Source: a virus. From it: 27,444 nucleotides of DNA. Numbering within the stretch: position 1 is the first letter of the stretch; every line of letters begins with the position of its first letter. Where the stretch lies: the IMG/VR virus record IMGVR_UViG_3300010371_000099, positions 1-27,444 of that record; one strand, 5' to 3'. The position numbers and the translations under genes are program-made. Below the pieces are notes generated by a model that searched no databases, was not told where the DNA came from, and saw nothing but the letters and a program-made list of their open reading frames with translations. This document shows positions 1-26,933 of the stretch, one piece after another.

Positions 1-308
1 ACCGCGCCGAACGTGGCGCCGACCCCGGCGTCCGATGTCGTGGCGTACGTCGCCACCCCGCCGTCGATGGGCGCGGGCGCGGGGGAGAGGGAGAGGCCGT
101 GGTAGCGGCCGGAGGTGATGGCGAGCCGGAGGTCGTCTTCGTAGTTGACGATGGAGTTCACGTCATCGGCGCCGATGCGCTTGAACGCCGGGTCCGGGCT
201 CGAGGCGTACTTGTCCACCTTCGGCGTGGGGTGATACCCGCCGTCGTAGACCTGCGCGCTCGCCGGCAAAGCCGCCAGCAGCGCCACGATGACGAGCGCG
301 CGCTTCAC
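1..308 (-). CDS. Secreted protein of unknown function, 3' part cut by window edge
   Basis: Reading leftward from a GTG at 308, 102 codons are open to the window edge. The GTG overlaps the TGA of the gene before it (GTGA, 305-308), which implies translational coupling. The N-terminus is a clear Sec signal peptide: MKR, a hydrophobic core, then a likely cleavage after PASA. The mature start is QVYDGGYHP. The visible mature part is rich in D, G, A, P and S, with no enzyme motif I can name. It lies in an operon with another secreted protein and the sigma factor. Function is unknown. The start choice rests on the overlap and the signal peptide. Confidence 0.6.
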   Translation of the reverse strand, partial: MKRALVIVALLAALPASAQVYDGGYHPTPKVDKYASSPDPAFKRIGADDVNSIVNYEDDLRLAITSGRYHGLSLSPAPAPIDGGVATYATTSDAGVGATFGA

Positions 309-748
309 GGCGCGAGCACGCTCACGTTGAGGGTGCCACCGTCAGCCGAGACGCCGCAGACGGCGTTCTGCGCGTCCACCAGCCCCCAGACGCGCGCGCT
401 GTCTGCCGCAATCGGCGAATCGGCGCCGAGGACGGCGAAGGTGGCGCCCGCGTCGGGGAACGGCCCGCCGTCGGTCGGGGCCGCCACGAAACGCGTGTAG
501 CACTTCGTGGCCGCGTCGCAGTACGTGCTCGTGCCCGCGCCTGCGTCGACCATCACGCAACACCCAGGCGCACCCTGGGGCATCGCGCAGGAGACGGTGT
601 ACTTGGGCGCGCTCGGCAGCGGCATGACCAGCTGAGGCGTCGCGCCGGGAATTGCATTCGGCCGCGTCGCGAGCGCCTGGGGGATGAAGACCACGCCCAG
701 GGCCACGGCGAGCAGACCACCTGCGACCATCCATCCGATTCGACTCAA
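305..748 (-). CDS. Secreted small protein sharing a C-terminal motif with the 14.4 kb moron protein
   Basis: A 147-residue protein with a signal peptide at residues 1-27 (probable cleavage after QALA). The mature part has several cysteines (CAMPQ, CCVM, YCD, CYT, VCG) suited to disulfides outside the cytoplasm. Its last 18 residues, VCGVSADGGTLNVSVLAP, closely match the end of the protein at 13923-14405 (ICAVSVDGGSLLVSIVNP). I chose the TTG start at 748 because AGGAGG sits 5 nt before it. The alternative ATG at 730 has no such site and would shorten the signal peptide. A five-codon leader ORF ends on this start. It may be a lysogenic-conversion or envelope protein; its role is unknown. Confidence 0.65.
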   Translation of the reverse strand: MSRIGWMVAGGLLAVALGVVFIPQALATRPNAIPGATPQLVMPLPSAPKYTVSCAMPQGAPGCCVMVDAGAGTSTYCDAATKCYTRFVAAPTDGGPFPDAGATFAVLGADSPIAADSARVWGLVDAQNAVCGVSADGGTLNVSVLAP

Positions 749-762
749 GGCAGCCTCCTCAT
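745..762 (-). other. Five-codon leader ORF (MRRLP) overlapping the next start
   Basis: ATG at 762, then AGG AGG CTG CCT and TGA at 747-745. The TGA overlaps the TTG start of the secreted-protein gene as TTGA. The two AGG arginine codons also form the Shine-Dalgarno site of that gene. A copy of the recurrent GCAACC motif sits directly before the ATG. This is seen in the sequence; a coupling or leader-peptide role is inference. Confidence 0.35.
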
Positions 763-781
763 GGCTGCCTCTGGTTGCTCC
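763..781 (-). promoter_or_regulatory. Start-associated motif copy, variant (GCAACCAG)
   Basis: Minus strand reads GGAGCAACCAGAGGCAGCC and then the ATG of the five-codon leader. GCAA to ATG is 16 nt, longer than the usual 12-13. It fills the gap between the sigma gene and the secreted-protein gene. Confidence 0.45.
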
Positions 782-787
782 GCGCGA

Positions 788-802
788 TTAGCCGCCGGCT
801 AA
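788..802. terminator. Inverted repeat over the sigma gene stop
   Basis: TTAGCC-GCC-GGCTAA is a perfect 6-bp-arm inverted repeat that includes the sigma gene's TAG. No T-run follows on the minus strand, so it is a weak terminator candidate or an mRNA-end hairpin. Confidence 0.3.
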
Positions 803-1476
803 GCTGCGACCTCCGGGTGCCAGCGCCGCATCCGCCCCTGCACCTGCAGCAGCGCCGCGTCCCAGATCGCCTTGACCTCGGCCTTGGTGCGCTTGAGGTG
901 GTTCGCGATCTCCTCCAGCGACATCGGCACCTTGCCCAGGGCGTGGAACACGAACACCTTGCGCTCGAGCGGCTGGAGCTCGTCGACCGCACGCTTCAGG
1001 TCGGCCATCACCTCGGCCTGCGACGCCTGCTCTTCCGGGTCCGGATCGTTCGCGGCCTCAGTGGCGACGTCATCCAAATCGGCCTGGCCGGGCACCGCCA
1101 CCTCGCCATGGGTATGGGCGAAGCGCACGGGTGACGTCAGCCGACGGGACGTGCGCCGCGCCTGCACCAGGACGGCCTTGCGGATGTATGCGCCGAACGG
1201 TGTGCCCTGCTCCGGGTCGTAGCGCGGGATCGCCTTCTCCACCTCTTCGGTGGCGTCGATGATCATGTCGAGCAGATGCGGGCTCTGCGCCTTGAATTCC
1301 TTGAGCACGATCCGGCAGACCTTGTGCGTGTTCGCGCGCAAGAGATGAAGTCGGAGCTTGTCGGTCGGTCGTCGCCGGAACGCGAGCCACAAAGGGCGCT
1401 GGTCCTCGTCGGACATGGCCCACTGCTTGGCCTCGGTGAGGAAGGTCTCGAGCCCTGCGTTCGTCGTCTCTCGCAT
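799..1476 (-). CDS. Phage-encoded sigma-70 family RNA polymerase sigma factor
   Basis: A 225-residue protein with the two conserved sigma-70 parts. Region 2 spans about residues 40-120, with LLDMIIDATEEVEKAIPRYD followed by PEQGTPFGAYIRKA, the counterpart of the DLIQ...FDPERG..F..YA..IR motif. Region 4 spans about 163-217, with LQPLERKVF and the helix-turn-helix SLEEIANHLKRTKAEV. An acidic linker lies between them. The length fits a compact alternative sigma factor closer to the RpoH type than to ECF factors. I prefer the ATG at 1476; a TTG at 1506 would add ten residues without a better ribosome site. It lies at the distal end of the tail operon and could redirect host RNA polymerase to phage promoters. 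That target is inferred. Confidence 0.82.
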   Translation of the reverse strand: MRETTNAGLETFLTEAKQWAMSDEDQRPLWLAFRRRPTDKLRLHLLRANTHKVCRIVLKEFKAQSPHLLDMIIDATEEVEKAIPRYDPEQGTPFGAYIRKAVLVQARRTSRRLTSPVRFAHTHGEVAVPGQADLDDVATEAANDPDPEEQASQAEVMADLKRAVDELQPLERKVFVFHALGKVPMSLEEIANHLKRTKAEVKAIWDAALLQVQGRMRRWHPEVAA

Positions 1477-1498
1477 AGGAGAGACTGTAACCGAGCGT

Positions 1499-1527
1499 CC
1501 TACCAAATGGTAGGCACCGGACTACCC
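1499..1527 (-). promoter_or_regulatory. Three GGTAG/CTACC half-sites in the sigma gene leader
   Basis: The 60-nt gap before the sigma gene holds GGGTAG (1527-1522), CCTACCA (1514-1508) and TGGTAGG (1505-1499) on the minus strand. The last two form a perfect 7-bp-arm palindrome. The middle arm can also pair with the first, so two hairpins exclude each other. It could be an operator with three half-sites or an RNA switch controlling the sigma factor. Confidence 0.45.
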
Positions 1528-1536
1528 TTTGGACGG

Positions 1537-2762: not shown

Positions 2763-2793
2763 TTGACTTCGCTCGGCATCCTGGGGTTACGGT
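2763..2793 (+). promoter_or_regulatory. Possible sigma-70-type promoter for the plus-strand island
   Basis: TTGACT at 2763-2768 and TACGGT at 2788-2793, spaced 19 nt, lie just before the ATG at 2805. The spacing is long and the -10 is weak, but a promoter is needed here because both genes run against the surrounding operon. Confidence 0.25.
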
Positions 2794-2804: not shown

Positions 2805-3266
2805 ATGCCCAGCGAGATCGAACGCCAGCGCGAATCGACGCCAATTCTGGCGCCAAGGAAGAATCGCGGATTGGTGATGGGCGCGGCTGGAGGAGCGGCT
2901 CAGCTTGGGCTCGTCGGCGCCAGTTGGTGGCAGAACCGGCGAGATGAACCCCAGATCAAGAAGCAGCATCTTGAATCGGCTCGTCAGGCATTTGAGCACA
3001 TGGCCGGAATGGACATCGCGCCTGCGGGCGTTCGGCTGATTGGCTATACGCACATCAAGGACGGTTGCCTGGTTGTGGAGGTGGCCAAGCCGTGGTTCCG
3101 GGTCTCCCGAGATGACCGCACGAAGATGGCCCTTGAGCTGCGCGACGGCTGGCTTAAAGCGGCTGGAGTCGATAGCAGTTGCTTTGAAATGGTCGATGCC
3201 GATGGCCGTCGGTTGCTTTCGTTTGATTCGAGCTCCCCGAATGTTCGATTCGGGAATGCGTTCTAA
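2805..3266 (+). CDS. Unknown protein on the opposite-strand island
   Basis: 153 residues from the ATG at 2805 (an upstream frame is open to 2763). N-terminal basic segment, then a Gly/Ala-rich weakly hydrophobic stretch (GAAGGAAQLGLVGASWW). A compact alpha/beta domain follows at about residues 75-140, with KDGCLVVEVAKPWFRVSRDD, LRDGWLKAAGVD and MVDADGRRLLSF. The domain looks like a real folded protein, but I cannot name the family. Third positions carry visibly more A and T than the minus-strand genes (2941-3000 is 30 of 60 G+C by hand count), which suggests separate acquisition. It sits 12 nt before a lipoprotein gene in the same direction. Confidence 0.6.
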   Translation: MPSEIERQRESTPILAPRKNRGLVMGAAGGAAQLGLVGASWWQNRRDEPQIKKQHLESARQAFEHMAGMDIAPAGVRLIGYTHIKDGCLVVEVAKPWFRVSRDDRTKMALELRDGWLKAAGVDSSCFEMVDADGRRLLSFDSSSPNVRFGNAF

Positions 3267-3278
3267 CGGGTGGGTCCG

Positions 3279-3497
3279 ATGCGCTGGCTGGGCTTGATGG
3301 CATTGATGACGGTGTGCGCGTGTGGGCAGCCCGTAGCAGAGGGCGCTGATTCGGATGCCGGAACGAGCGTCGATGCCGGCCATCTGGACGCAGGGCCGCT
3401 CGACGCCGGCCCGGTCGACGCTGGCTGCATCCCATGCGACCCGCCATTCGATGGCGGCTACTGCGGCGCAACGCCGCCGAACGGTCGCCGCTGCTAG
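3279..3497 (+). CDS. Small DAG-repeat lipoprotein
   Basis: 72 residues from the ATG at 3279 (a GTG at 3270 is possible). The N-terminus is a lipoprotein signal: MRWLGLMALMTV then CAC. The acylated cysteine is probably the second one, with V-C-A-C as an imperfect lipobox. The mature part carries repeated DAG units spaced 5-6 residues apart (DAGTS, DAGHL, DAGPL, DAGPV, DAGC), then a Cys/Gly-rich tail. DAG-rich linkers are common in myxobacterial lipoproteins. Its TAG and the TAG of the converging tail hub gene share the tetranucleotide CTAG (3494-3497). It may be an envelope protein made by the prophage or phage; function unknown. Confidence 0.6.
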   Translation: MRWLGLMALMTVCACGQPVAEGADSDAGTSVDAGHLDAGPLDAGPVDAGCIPCDPPFDGGYCGATPPNGRRC

Positions 3498-12174: not shown

Positions 12175-12193
12175 CCGTAGGTGACGCCTACGG
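12175..12193 (-). promoter_or_regulatory. Hairpin in the tube gene leader
   Basis: Perfect inverted repeat CCGTAGG-CGTCA-CCTACGG, whose first arm overlaps the end of a start-associated motif. The 7-bp stem with 5-nt loop lies 12 nt before the ATG at 12163, so it could shield or protect the mRNA 5' end. Confidence 0.45.
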
Positions 12194-13922: not shown

Positions 13923-14405
13923 TCAGGGGTTGACGATGGACACCAGGAGCGAGCCGCCGTCCACGGACACCGCGCAGATCGAGTCGTCGGTGCCGGGCAG
14001 ATGGAAGCGCACGGGCGTGGCCGCGGGCAGATAGTTGTCGCCGCCGACGGATGCGTAGCCGCCATCGCCGGAGCCAGGCGGGTTGTTGTGGCCCTTGGTG
14101 GTCGGGTAGCCGCCATCGGCCGCGCCGTAGCTGGCCGCGGTGCGGTAGTAGGCCGGCGCCGCGCCCAGGAACGTGACCTCGACGTCCGCGCCGCTCGAGC
14201 GGTTGCCGGCGAGGGTCAGCGGCGAGACGCAGAGGCCGTCACCGCCCTGGGGCAGCGCGCCGAGCGTGGGCAGCTGCGGCGAGCCCTTCGAGAGGGTGCG
14301 GATGGTGTTGTAGGCGTAGGCCTCGGCGCGGCGCACCGGGGTGAGCACCTGGAGTGAGGCAGCCGCCAGCGCGACACAGCCGACGAAGGTCAGGAACTTC
14401 TTCAT
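13923..14405 (-). CDS. Secreted protein, moron in the connector module
   Basis: 160 residues with a signal peptide, MKKFLTFVGCVALAAASLQV, and probable cleavage near RRAEA. The mature part is rich in Gly, Asp and Pro (YGAADGGYPTT, GSGDGGYASVGG) with two cysteines. The end, ICAVSVDGGSLLVSIVNP, closely matches the end of the secreted protein at 305-748. It sits between two virion genes (DUF4054-type connector and head closure), where a secreted protein is out of place. It has its own leader, Shine-Dalgarno (GGAGG) and intrinsic terminator, which is the usual form of a moron. It may alter the host envelope or exclude other phages; the function is unknown. Confidence 0.75.
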   Translation of the reverse strand: MKKFLTFVGCVALAAASLQVLTPVRRAEAYAYNTIRTLSKGSPQLPTLGALPQGGDGLCVSPLTLAGNRSSGADVEVTFLGAAPAYYRTAASYGAADGGYPTTKGHNNPPGSGDGGYASVGGDNYLPAATPVRFHLPGTDDSICAVSVDGGSLLVSIVNP

Positions 14406-17004: not shown

Positions 17005-17637
17005 TCAGGCCTTCGGGGCGGGACGGCTGGAGAACGCCGGGCGGTAGTTCTTGGCCAGGCTGTCGAGGTGCTCCTCGTGGTCCTTGCGCGCCTTGTCGGG
17101 GTCGCCGCCGCCATCGCGATGCGCCTTGTCCTCGCGCTCGACCTCGGCGCGGAGGCTGGCCTCGGTGGGGTGCTCGCCGTCGAAGCTCTCGAGCGCGGCG
17201 TCGAGGCGGCCGGAGATGTAGCCGCCATCCTTGCCGTCGAGCTTCACGCCCGGCTGCAGCTTCTCCAGCATCAGCTTGTTGATCGCCGCCTCGTCGAGGC
17301 CGTCGAGCTTCGCGTCCGCGCCCAGCACGCGCTGGGCCTTGGAGACGATGGCCACGCGCGCCTGCACGGCGGCGTCCATGCGCTTCGGATCTTCGGCGTC
17401 CTTGCGAGCCTTCTCGCTCTTCTCGAGCTCGGCCTTGATGCCGTCCTCGCGACCCTTGGACTTCTCCAGGTCGGTCTTCGCGGTGACGAGCGCGGTCTCG
17501 GCGTCGGTGCGCAGCTTGCGCTCCGCAGACAGCGCGGCGTCGTGCGCGGCCTGCACGCGGGCGTCGCGGCGGGCGAGGATCTCGCGCACCTGCTCCGGCG
17601 TGGTGCACTCGATGCCGTCGATCGTGATTTTGTCCAT
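17005..17637 (-). CDS. Nested scaffold protein from an internal start (candidate)
   Basis: An in-frame ATG at 17637 (codon 214, MDKITIDGIECTTPEQV) would make the coiled-coil half alone, 210 residues, as lambda Nu3 is made within gene C. A weak GGAG lies 12 nt before it, and two start-associated motif copies lie 27-63 nt upstream within the linker. In other genes this motif occurs before starts. Expression is inferred. Confidence 0.4.
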   Translation of the reverse strand: MDKITIDGIECTTPEQVREILARRDARVQAAHDAALSAERKLRTDAETALVTAKTDLEKSKGREDGIKAELEKSEKARKDAEDPKRMDAAVQARVAIVSKAQRVLGADAKLDGLDEAAINKLMLEKLQPGVKLDGKDGGYISGRLDAALESFDGEHPTEASLRAEVEREDKAHRDGGGDPDKARKDHEEHLDSLAKNYRPAFSSRPAPKA

Positions 17638-18276
17638 GAGGCGCGGCTCCGCGGAAGGTTCATGGCCGGGTTGCACCGGCCGTTCGGGATTGGGTTGCAC
17701 CATGGGCTTGGCCGGATCGGGCGCGGCATCGGCGACGAGCACCGCGTCACCGTCCATGCGGACCCGCGCGACCGGGCCTGCGCGCGCGTCCTTCACGACC
17801 GCCACGTGGTTGCCGACGATGTTTCGCTGGATAGCGTCGTAGGCGCCGTAGTCGGCGTGCGTCCCTGGCGTCATCTCCAGGTCACAGTCGTAGCCGTTCG
17901 AAAGCTGGTCCTTCTTGCCGCTGGTGATCTGCTTCACCAGCGCCTTGTCCGTGACCATCACCGAGCCACAGAGCAAGTCTCCATCGCGGCGGATGTCGTT
18001 GCCGACGTTGCCGCGCTGGTAGAGCGTGGCGTTGTCGGCCGTGACCATCACTGGCGGGTGATCGTCCGTGACCGGCAGCATTTCGAACGACGCCATCGAG
18101 TCGGCCTTGAAGACCTCTTCAGGCAGGCGGAGCTCGCGCCGCGTGGTGCCGTCGGCGAGCCGGTACGTGAAGACGCCCACGCGCGTGAGCACCGCGTCGG
18201 CCTTCAAGAAGCCGTTGGGCAGGAGCTCGGGCTTGCGGCTCGGCGGGCTGGCAAGGTCGTAGCGGCGGACCGGCAT
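17005..18276 (-). CDS. Capsid maturation protease and scaffold (DUF2213 type)
   Basis: 423 residues in two halves. Residues 1-175 follow the DUF2213 pattern: LLPNGFLKADAVLTRVGVFTY, VTDDHPP, GNVGNDIRRDGDLL, DQLSNGYD and IQRNIVGNHVAVVKDARAG. H73, S126 and H157 are candidates for the protease triad; this is inference. A Pro-rich linker (176-213) leads to a scaffold half with a coiled coil at about 240-295 (LEKSKGREDGIKAELEKSEK). The first half likely cleaves scaffold and capsid in the prohead. The ATG at 18276 follows a start-associated motif exactly. Two more copies of the motif lie inside the linker, before a candidate internal start. Confidence 0.75.
   Translation of the reverse strand: MPVRRYDLASPPSRKPELLPNGFLKADAVLTRVGVFTYRLADGTTRRELRLPEEVFKADSMASFEMLPVTDDHPPVMVTADNATLYQRGNVGNDIRRDGDLLCGSVMVTDKALVKQITSGKKDQLSNGYDCDLEMTPGTHADYGAYDAIQRNIVGNHVAVVKDARAGPVARVRMDGDAVLVADAAPDPAKPMVQPNPERPVQPGHEPSAEPRLMDKITIDGIECTTPEQVREILARRDARVQAAHDAALSAERKLRTDAETALVTAKTDLEKSKGREDGIKAELEKSEKARKDAEDPKRMDAAVQARVAIVSKAQRVLGADAKLDGLDEAAINKLMLEKLQPGVKLDGKDGGYISGRLDAALESFDGEHPTEASLRAEVEREDKAHRDGGGDPDKARKDHEEHLDSLAKNYRPAFSSRPAPKA
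17664..17677 (-). promoter_or_regulatory. Start-associated motif copy inside the protease/scaffold gene
   Basis: GGTGCAACCCGGCC then an out-of-frame ATG at 17663; it lies 27 nt before the in-frame internal ATG at 17637. Confidence 0.4.
17688..17701 (-). promoter_or_regulatory. Second, weaker motif copy inside the same gene
   Basis: GTGCAACCCAATC lies 24 nt upstream of the copy at 17664 in the same orientation. The coding repeat (VQPNPERP / VQPGHEPS) could explain both. Confidence 0.3.
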
Positions 18277-25649: not shown

Positions 25650-25942
25650 GTTTGCGCCTCCAGCCACGCCAGCGCCACGTTCACCTTCGGCGTGGCGAGC
25701 TTCCTCGACGGTTCGCGGCGCCGGCTTGAACGACTCGATCGCGCGCAGTCGCTCTCAATCCTGACCCGAGCGCCGATCGACATCTGCTCAGCCGCGCGCG
25801 CCGGAACCGCGGCCGTGATCAGGTGGTTCTCTGTCGACCCAGATGAACCGAGAACCTTGAAGCGACACCAGACCTTTCCGTCGCCTCCAGTCGATCCAAT
25901 CTCGACAACTTCGCACTCCTCGACGAGCTTCGCTTTGCTCAT
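25646..25942 (-). CDS. Small protein of unknown function after the ParB-like gene
   Basis: 98 residues; ATGA overlap with the ParB-like gene. The first 65 residues look like a small beta-barrel (EVVEIGSTGGDGKVWCRFKV, ENHLITAAVPA, GARVRIES). A basic Ser/Arg-rich linker (SSRSSRRREPSRK) leads to a last helix. It could bind nucleic acid, but no family is recognised. Confidence 0.5.
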   Translation of the reverse strand: MSKAKLVEECEVVEIGSTGGDGKVWCRFKVLGSSGSTENHLITAAVPARAAEQMSIGARVRIESDCARSSRSSRRREPSRKLATPKVNVALAWLEAQT

Positions 25943-26883
25943 GGTGTCGTCTCCCCCGCCCTAAACGTCACCACCACGAACCCCGGGTGCGCTGCGAACT
26001 CCGACACCTCGGGTCGCCCCAGCCCCTTGAGCGCCGCCACGGCCTCTCTGGCGCGTTCGGAGTCGACGACCGCCGGTAGCTTCAGGGTGGCCGGCGCGGA
26101 CTCGCCTGAGGCCGACGCGGCGGCCTTGTGCTCGCGAATCCAGGCCATGAGCGTGCGCGGACCTTCGACCTTGGGGATTTCGGCGACAGGCTTGCCTTCG
26201 ATCCTGGCAGCCAATGCGGCCTTATGGGCACGCACGGCCTTCAGCACGGGTTGGAGCGCCTTGGTGAGTGCTTCCGGATCGGCCAGCGCCGCGGCGGCGT
26301 CGGTGATCGCCAGCTCGTCGTTCTGCACCGCGGCGATCAGCGCCTTGTTGCCGCTCTTCTGGATCTTCTCCGCGCGCTCGATGGTGTCGGCGGACACGCT
26401 CACAGCTCGAGCTGCCAGGTCGCTGGCGCGGATTGGCTCGCTCGAACCTGTGCCGCTTTTAGCGGCAGAGGGGTCGGCCTTCTTCTGCCGCTCCGCGGCC
26501 TCCGCGCGCAGGGCCGGCAACGCGGCCACGGCCGTGAACACACGCTGCTGCGTGGTCAGGTGCCGGCGCCCGTGATCATTCGCGGCGAGCACGTAGGCCG
26601 TGGGGGTTCCACACTCGCCGTTCCACTCGACGTAGAGCGGCTCGCGCCGTGGCTTCTCGGTCATGCCGCAGGCCATGAAGCGATTGCGGCCGTCGAGGAT
26701 GAGCCCGCGGTAACGCATGATCGGCTGCAACAGCCCGTGCTTCTCGATGTCCTTCGCGAGCGCGACCAGCTGGTCCGACGACATGAGCGGCAGGTGTTCC
26801 GCCGATGGGTGCGGCCGATAGTGCTGCTCCGGGTCGGTGATGGGCGTCTGCGGCCCGATGCTCTTCGCTTCGCTCTTCTTCAT
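25939..26883 (-). CDS. ParB-like nuclease-domain protein
   Basis: 314 residues from ATG at 26883, with GGAGGGG just ahead of it. Residues about 20-85 follow the ParB N-terminal domain: RPHPSAEHLPLMSSDQLVAL, KHGLLQPIMRYRGLILDGRN and RFMACG. A helical part (about 105-260) holds a Q-R-V-F-T-A helix and likely DNA-binding segments, and the C-terminus is Ala-rich. In phages such proteins occur with packaging or with DNA modification and partition genes; here it precedes the terminase genes. It could help choose packaging sites or act as a transcription factor; the role is not proven. Confidence 0.7.
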   Translation of the reverse strand: MKKSEAKSIGPQTPITDPEQHYRPHPSAEHLPLMSSDQLVALAKDIEKHGLLQPIMRYRGLILDGRNRFMACGMTEKPRREPLYVEWNGECGTPTAYVLAANDHGRRHLTTQQRVFTAVAALPALRAEAAERQKKADPSAAKSGTGSSEPIRASDLAARAVSVSADTIERAEKIQKSGNKALIAAVQNDELAITDAAAALADPEALTKALQPVLKAVRAHKAALAARIEGKPVAEIPKVEGPRTLMAWIREHKAAASASGESAPATLKLPAVVDSERAREAVAALKGLGRPEVSEFAAHPGFVVVTFRAGETTP

Positions 26884-26933
26884 TGCCCCTCCAAAGTTTG
26901 AGATGCCAGCAAGATTCAATGTTTATTAATTAT
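26884..26933 (-). promoter_or_regulatory. AT-rich gap, possible promoter before the ParB-like gene
   Basis: The 50-nt gap reads AATTAATAAACATTGAATC and onward, the most A+T-rich spot of the window. It holds TTGAAT and TAATAA-like boxes but no clear pair at 17 nt. It could be the promoter of the late operon. Confidence 0.3.

What the first reader, a model, noticed from the sequence alone, without database searches (positions are those of the whole stretch)
799..1527. A phage sigma factor behind a three-arm GGTAG/CTACC control region
A sigma-70-family gene lies at the end of the tail operon, unusual for siphophages. The 60-nt gap before it has one CCTACC arm flanked by two GGTAG arms, so that two hairpins (6 bp with a 4-nt loop, and 5 bp with an 8-nt loop) exclude each other, or one regulator binds three half-sites. 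This could be autoregulation, or control of a switch from host to phage promoters.
Basis: partly seen in the sequence, partly recalled or inferred. Interest (0 to 1): 0.62.

Follow-up and report, generated by a model that had tools for sequence, protein, structure and literature searches.

The report
Phage sigma gene with paired operator
An uncultured tailed phage carries a gene for a sigma factor, a protein that redirects the bacterial transcription machinery, and the 60 bases before it hold what looks like a paired protein-binding switch site, a sensible but only modestly novel control arrangement.

Summary
The sequence facts are mostly right. The ORF at 1476-799 (minus strand) encodes a real, divergent sigma-70 factor: TIGR02937 scores 61.8 bits against a cut-off of 42.9, and Foldseek matches sigma-32, sigma-S and WhiG. 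It looks two-domain, ECF-like. No close relative turned up in four collections.

The leader is exceptional: the most structured 75-nt window on the coding strand by z-score (rank 1 of 1825). The two "mutually exclusive" hairpins, however, differ by about 9 kcal/mol, so an equilibrium RNA switch is not supported.

The three arms are better read as four half-sites: two CCTACC-N4-GGTAGG-type palindromes 22 bp apart (1536-1521 degenerate, 1514-1499 perfect). The same pair, same spacing and order, occurs in one distant relative (L131), but the palindrome is absent from 48 other relatives, and L131 shows no sigma gene beside it.

My best reading is an operator-controlled promoter for an accessory sigma gene; translational control is the main rival.

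Noticed in passing, and statistically stronger: an 11-copy start-associated motif (GCAAYCCG) before many structural genes, absent before sigma.

The parts
799..1476 (-). Sigma-70-family factor, 225 aa (ATG at 1476-1474; stop at 801-799): sigma2 (about residues 40-115), disordered linker, sigma4 helix-turn-helix (about 147-220)
   Evidence: TIGR02937 61.8 bits vs cut-off 42.9; Pfam Sigma70_r2 and r4 below gathering scores; AlphaFold2 pLDDT 71.5 with low-confidence linker; Foldseek top hits sigma32, sigmaS, WhiG, sigmaE. Codon bias supports the ATG and not the upstream TTG 1506.
1499..1514 (-).
   Evidence: Only exact CCTACCNNNNGGTAGG in the window; perfect in L131 9199-9214 as well.
1521..1536 (-).
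   Evidence: 3-mismatch match; counterpart in L131 9177-9192 CCTACC-ATAG-GGTAGT, also 22 bp upstream.
1466..1485 (-). H2: perfect 7-bp inverted repeat GTCTCTC-CTATGC-GAGAGAC, start codon in the 6-nt loop
   Evidence: pairing probability 0.99. Comparable perfect 7-bp repeats occur at 0.66 per kb, so it could be chance.
1487..1525 (-). H1: predicted long RNA hairpin built on O2 (-19.6 kcal/mol)
1484..1489 (-). TACAGT, candidate -10 element 7 nt before the ATG, within GGTTACAGT
   Evidence: Sequence; GGTTACRGT occurs exactly twice in the window, here and at 2785-2793 (+), 14 nt before another ATG. Consensus scan finds no sigma-70 promoter.
305..748 (-). Downstream gene, putative exported protein, TTG start with AGGAGG inside an 8-bp hairpin and a start-associated motif upstream

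Best explanation
A sigma-70-family (ECF-like, two-domain) factor encoded in the accessory gene cluster that follows the tail genes has its own promoter. Two palindromic operators 22 bp apart (about two helical turns), lying 23-60 bp before the start codon, are bound by dimers of one unidentified phage or host regulator. Binding covers the -35 region of a promoter whose -10 is probably TACAGT, so the regulator represses or activates the sigma gene separately from the upstream tail operon. The mRNA would be very short-leadered or leaderless, which fits the missing Shine-Dalgarno sequence. The sigma factor then directs host core polymerase to promoters not visible on this contig. Shown: sigma family membership, the palindrome pair, its recurrence in one related phage, and no Shine-Dalgarno sequence. 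Inferred: dimer binding, promoter, leaderless transcript, target genes.
For: Sigma identity. Perfect 16-bp palindrome with a degenerate copy 22 bp upstream. The same pair, spacing and order in L131, a contig with related TerL, portal, protease and other head proteins, with 16 of 24 non-pattern positions identical, p 1.5e-5 per hit. The leader lacks the start-associated motif carried by neighbouring genes 2098 and 748 (PWM rank 305), so it looks like a separately controlled unit. No Shine-Dalgarno sequence. GGTTACRGT shared with the + strand accessory gene at 2808.
Against: No consensus promoter in the scan. The palindrome is absent from 48 other relatives searched. In L131 the element lies in a non-coding stretch at the contig end, 2.7 kb upstream of TerL, with no sigma gene on the contig. 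The five database hits are no more than chance would give for such a pattern (own estimate); only L131's extra identity and kinship lift it. No regulator gene could be assigned. The RNA reading of the same bases is not excluded.
Confidence: 0.45

Rival explanations
1. Translational control: the sigma mRNA carries H1 and H2; H2 holds the AUG in a hairpin loop and no Shine-Dalgarno sequence exists, so translation stays low until a protein (perhaps the sigma factor itself or another phage protein), temperature or coupling to the upstream tail gene opens it.
For: Lowest folding z of 1825 windows and of 28 gene starts (-4.7, none of 300 random windows as low). H1 and H2 pairing probabilities above 0.98 in longer transcripts. 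Sense H1 is more stable than antisense (-19.6 vs -14.4).
Against: With O2 and H2 held fixed the remaining structure is ordinary (z -1.1). H2-type repeats are common enough for chance. No covariation could be tested for want of relatives; no Rfam family. A transcript starting near the ATG would lack the 5' arm of H2.
Confidence: 0.25
2. No dedicated control: the sigma gene is co-transcribed with the tail genes or read as a moron, and the palindromes are neutral or serve as an RNA-processing or 3'-end-stabilising hairpin for the upstream transcript.
For: Same strand as the tail genes, 60-nt gap; three-arm layouts are at chance frequency on the whole strand; the palindrome is missing in 48 relatives.
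Against: Extreme stability rank and the shared operator pair in L131.
Confidence: 0.23
3. One reading: two mutually exclusive RNA hairpins toggling sigma expression.
For: The middle arm really can pair with either flank; the alternative is 10 of 11 paired when extended.
Against: 8.9 kcal/mol in favour of one state, alternative probability 2e-6 to 4e-4; no terminator with a U-run.
Confidence: 0.04

Closest known systems
Phage-encoded sigma-70 factors (survey in PMC9429907; ECF superfamily model TIGR02937)
   Same: Sigma2 and sigma4 domains; sigma genes occur in 13.4% of 4,350 phage genomes surveyed there.
   Different: No close sequence relative found in viral contigs, phages, plasmids or genomes; not shown to be required for phage development.
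Sigma genes beside the terminase in TerL-related phage contigs L024, L023, L038
   Same: Same sigma-70 superfamily in phages with related large terminases (3 of 50 records above cut-off).
   Different: There the gene stands directly upstream of the terminase genes; here it follows the tail genes. Only 19-29% identity.
Tandem-operator promoters of phage and host dimeric repressors (general knowledge)
   Same: Two 16-bp palindromes about two helical turns apart, just upstream of a start codon.
   Different: The sequence CCTACC-N4-GGTAGG matched no operator that I could find in one literature search; no regulator identified.
Start Associated Sequences (SAS/ESAS) of cluster K mycobacteriophages (PMC3203893)
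   Same: Repeated, one-orientation motifs just before gene starts, about half with extra inverted repeats; comparable to the GCAAYCCG motif of this window.
   Different: The sigma leader lacks the motif; the motif itself is GCAAYCCG, not GGGATAGGAGCCC.

Membership tests
Sigma-70 family (TIGR02937, superfamily level) | Score above curated cut-off | tested here: met
   61.8 bits vs 42.9; 62.2 bits
Sigma-70 family (Pfam) | Sigma70_r2 and Sigma70_r4 above gathering score | tested here: not met
   21.4 vs 24 and 16.8 vs 24.1 bits; near misses in the right order
Sigma-70 family | Sigma fold | tested here: met
   Foldseek: the best matches are sigma chains or RNA polymerase-sigma complexes, E 5.7e-7 for sigma32; TM-scores low (0.28-0.43) because the two domains are placed differently
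ECF (group 4) sigma factors | Only sigma2 and sigma4, joined by a linker | tested here: inconclusive
   Model shows two helical domains with a mostly pLDDT<50 linker at 116-146, but the alignment held 4 sequences
Sigma-70 family | Binds core polymerase and directs promoter recognition | not testable with these tools
   Needs purified protein
Equilibrium RNA switch / riboswitch | Two alternative structures of comparable stability, or an Rfam match | tested here: not met
   8.9 kcal/mol apart; no Rfam hit
Intrinsic terminator | G+C-rich hairpin followed by a T-run | tested here: not met
   None called at 1477-1536
Conserved operator | Same sites upstream of the same gene in relatives | tested here: inconclusive
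   Same pair in L131 only, gene context there unknown; no relative with an orthologous sigma gene was found
SAS/ESAS-like start motif | Copy of the phage's own start-associated motif before the gene | tested here: not met
   Sigma leader PWM score 1.4, rank 305

The most novel reading that the evidence does not exclude
A two-operator module (CCTACC-N4-GGTAGG twice, 22 bp apart) shared by very distant phages is the binding site of a so far unknown phage or host regulator; here it gates a phage ECF-like sigma factor whose start codon is also locked in an RNA hairpin, giving both transcriptional and translational control of a late or lysogenic transcription switch.
Probability: 0.15. Interest if true: 0.55.

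Novelty: new member of a known kind. Interest (0 to 1): 0.35.

Why it matters
Phage sigma factors decide which host polymerase molecules serve the phage. A sigma gene placed after the tail genes with its own operator pair, rather than beside the terminase as in the three sigma-bearing relatives found here, would suggest an accessory or lysogeny role and gives a concrete short DNA site with which to fish for the regulator.

Tried and rejected
Close relatives of the sigma factor: none in viral contigs, genome contigs, phages or plasmids, nor in 50 TerL-related records by protein search. Leader as terminator, Rfam RNA or conserved DNA in phages and plasmids: nothing beyond chance. TTG 1506 as the start codon: rejected on codon bias (-12.5 bits for 1506-1477, +10.5 for 1476-1417). 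Leader's GGGTAGTCCGGTGC as a copy of the phage start motif (12/14 to one copy): rejected, PWM rank 305. Gene starts being structured in general: not so, p 0.15. Shared 16-mer of the start motif in IMG/VR: 19 single hits, no phage with repeated copies.

Full report
What the window is. The window is an entire IMG/VR virus record of 27,444 bases, linear and probably a fragment. Packaging, head and tail genes run on the minus strand: small terminase 24575-24129, large terminase 24139-22616, portal 22597-20663, protease 18276-17005, major head protein 16405-15440, tail tube 12163-11756, tape measure 10230-7150, tail protein 6283-3494. No tail sheath was found, so a siphophage is plausible. After 3494 come small accessory genes: two ORFs on the + strand (2808-3266 and 3270-3497), a weak SLATT-like membrane protein (2779-2255), a BppU-N-like protein (1860-1537), the sigma gene (1476-799) and two putative exported proteins.

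The protein. Residues 44-213 match TIGR02937 at 61.8 bits, above the 42.9 cut-off. Pfam regions 2 and 4 match in order but below their gathering scores. A structure model (mean pLDDT 71.5, four-sequence alignment) shows two helical domains and a disordered linker; Foldseek returns sigma factors, sigma-32 first. The helix-turn-helix MSLEEIANHLKRTKAEVKAIWDAAL looks canonical (sequence). No close relative was found. Among 50 contigs with a related large terminase, three carry a full sigma gene, each immediately upstream of its terminase genes. Placement after the tail genes is therefore different, while possession of a sigma factor is not rare: 13.4% of surveyed phage genomes (PMC9429907).

The leader. 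On the minus strand the 60-nt gap reads CCGTCCAAAGGGTAGTCCGGTGCCTACCATTTGGTAGGACGCTCGGTTACAGTCTCTCCT, then ATG. The RNA 1536-1462 folds at -33.5 kcal/mol, z -4.07, 0 of 200 shuffles. In a scan of 1,825 windows on this strand the leader has the lowest z, and it is the lowest of 28 gene starts. Holding the 16-bp palindrome and the start-codon hairpin fixed leaves nothing unusual (z -1.1), so these two features carry the signal.

From three arms to two operators. Scanning IMG/VR for the exact three-arm geometry gave five contigs, no more than chance would give for such a pattern (my estimate). One of them, L131, encodes a related TerL (33%), portal, protease and another head protein. Its element, CCTACC-ATAG-GGTAGT-TTGCTG-CCTACC-ACTT-GGTAGG, aligns with the window's CCGTCC-AAAG-GGTAGT-CCGGTG-CCTACC-ATTT-GGTAGG. 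Of 24 positions outside the search pattern 16 agree; random sequence of L131 composition reaches that in 1.5e-5 of trials, and the other four contigs score 5 to 8. An independent repeat search finds the L131 copies as direct repeats 22 bp apart, and a relaxed palindrome scan finds the degenerate partner exactly 22 bp upstream in both phages. The sites are thus best read as two palindromes, i.e. four half-sites, about two helical turns apart. Reservations: 48 other relatives lack the palindrome, and in L131 the element lies in a non-coding stretch at the contig end with no sigma gene on the contig.

Start region. The ATG at 1476 has no Shine-Dalgarno sequence, unlike many genes of this phage, and sits in the loop of a perfect 7-bp inverted repeat (1485-1466). 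A TACAGT lies 7 nt before the ATG within GGTTACAGT; GGTTACRGT occurs exactly twice in the window, the other copy being 14 nt before the + strand ATG at 2808. The consensus scan finds no sigma-70 promoter in this region, so the promoter is inferred.

Mechanism. I favour operator-controlled transcription of an accessory sigma gene (0.45), with translational control by the start-codon hairpin as main rival (0.25) and no dedicated control next (0.23). The RNA and DNA readings use the same bases; without relatives carrying this sigma gene, covariation cannot decide between them.

A separate pattern. While comparing gaps I found a motif, (A/G/T)GCAA(C/T)CCG with minor variants, in eleven strong copies, all on the coding strand. 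GCAAYCCG occurs 13 times on that strand and never on the other; shuffles average 2.0, maximum 7. In leave-one-out scoring all eleven copies exceed every other site in the window. Five begin exactly 12 nt before a start codon (genes 22597, 18276, 12654, 6283, 2098); another is 13 nt before ATG 13832 in the ORF called from 13868; four lie 30-50 nt before 748, 10879, 12163 and 14405; one is 56 nt before ATG 15312. The 13832 and 15312 starts are my reassignments. The motif resembles the start-associated sequences of cluster K mycobacteriophages (PMC3203893), which are of unknown function. The sigma leader lacks it (rank 305), which again marks sigma as separately controlled.

Noticed in passing
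Minus strand: 22609, 18288, 15368, 14450, 13845, 12666, 12198, 10929, 6295, 2110, 778 (weaker: 24599, 18982, 17674): Start-associated motif GCAAYCCG, eleven strong copies on the coding strand only, five exactly 12 nt before a start codon; resembles SAS of cluster K mycobacteriophages. Several copies sit in small predicted hairpins with GCAA in the loop.
   Followed up: partly
12175-12193 (-), leader of tail tube gene 12163: CCGTAGG-CGTCA-CCTACGG, the only other CCTAC/GTAGG inverted repeat on the coding strand besides the sigma leader (expected about 0.04), inside a longer two-part stem ending 3 nt before the ATG.
   Followed up: partly
13923-14405 and 305-748 (-): Two putative exported proteins that are diverged paralogues (28% over 119 aa, E 5e-5), one between head-tail connector genes, one after sigma.
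   Followed up: no
2808-3497 (+): Two + strand ORFs (152 aa; 75 aa with DAG repeats and a lipoprotein-like start) inserted against the direction of the tail operon, with TTGACT upstream: moron-like.
   Followed up: no
745-801 (-): The gap after sigma has a 6-bp hairpin over the sigma stop codon and an 8-bp hairpin holding the AGGAGG of gene 748.
   Followed up: partly
17005-18276 (-), near ATG of MDKITIDG: Possible nested scaffold start inside the DUF2213 protease gene, with a weaker start-motif copy at 17674, about 36 nt upstream.
   Followed up: no
L131 7489-9272: 1.7-kb stretch without convincing genes, 46% G+C against 53% for the contig, upstream of the terminase genes, holding the operator pair at its end; no tRNA or Rfam match.
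   Followed up: partly
25939-26919 (-): ParB-like protein upstream of the terminase genes (phrog_4715, E 2.6e-5), with a relative in L062.
   Followed up: no
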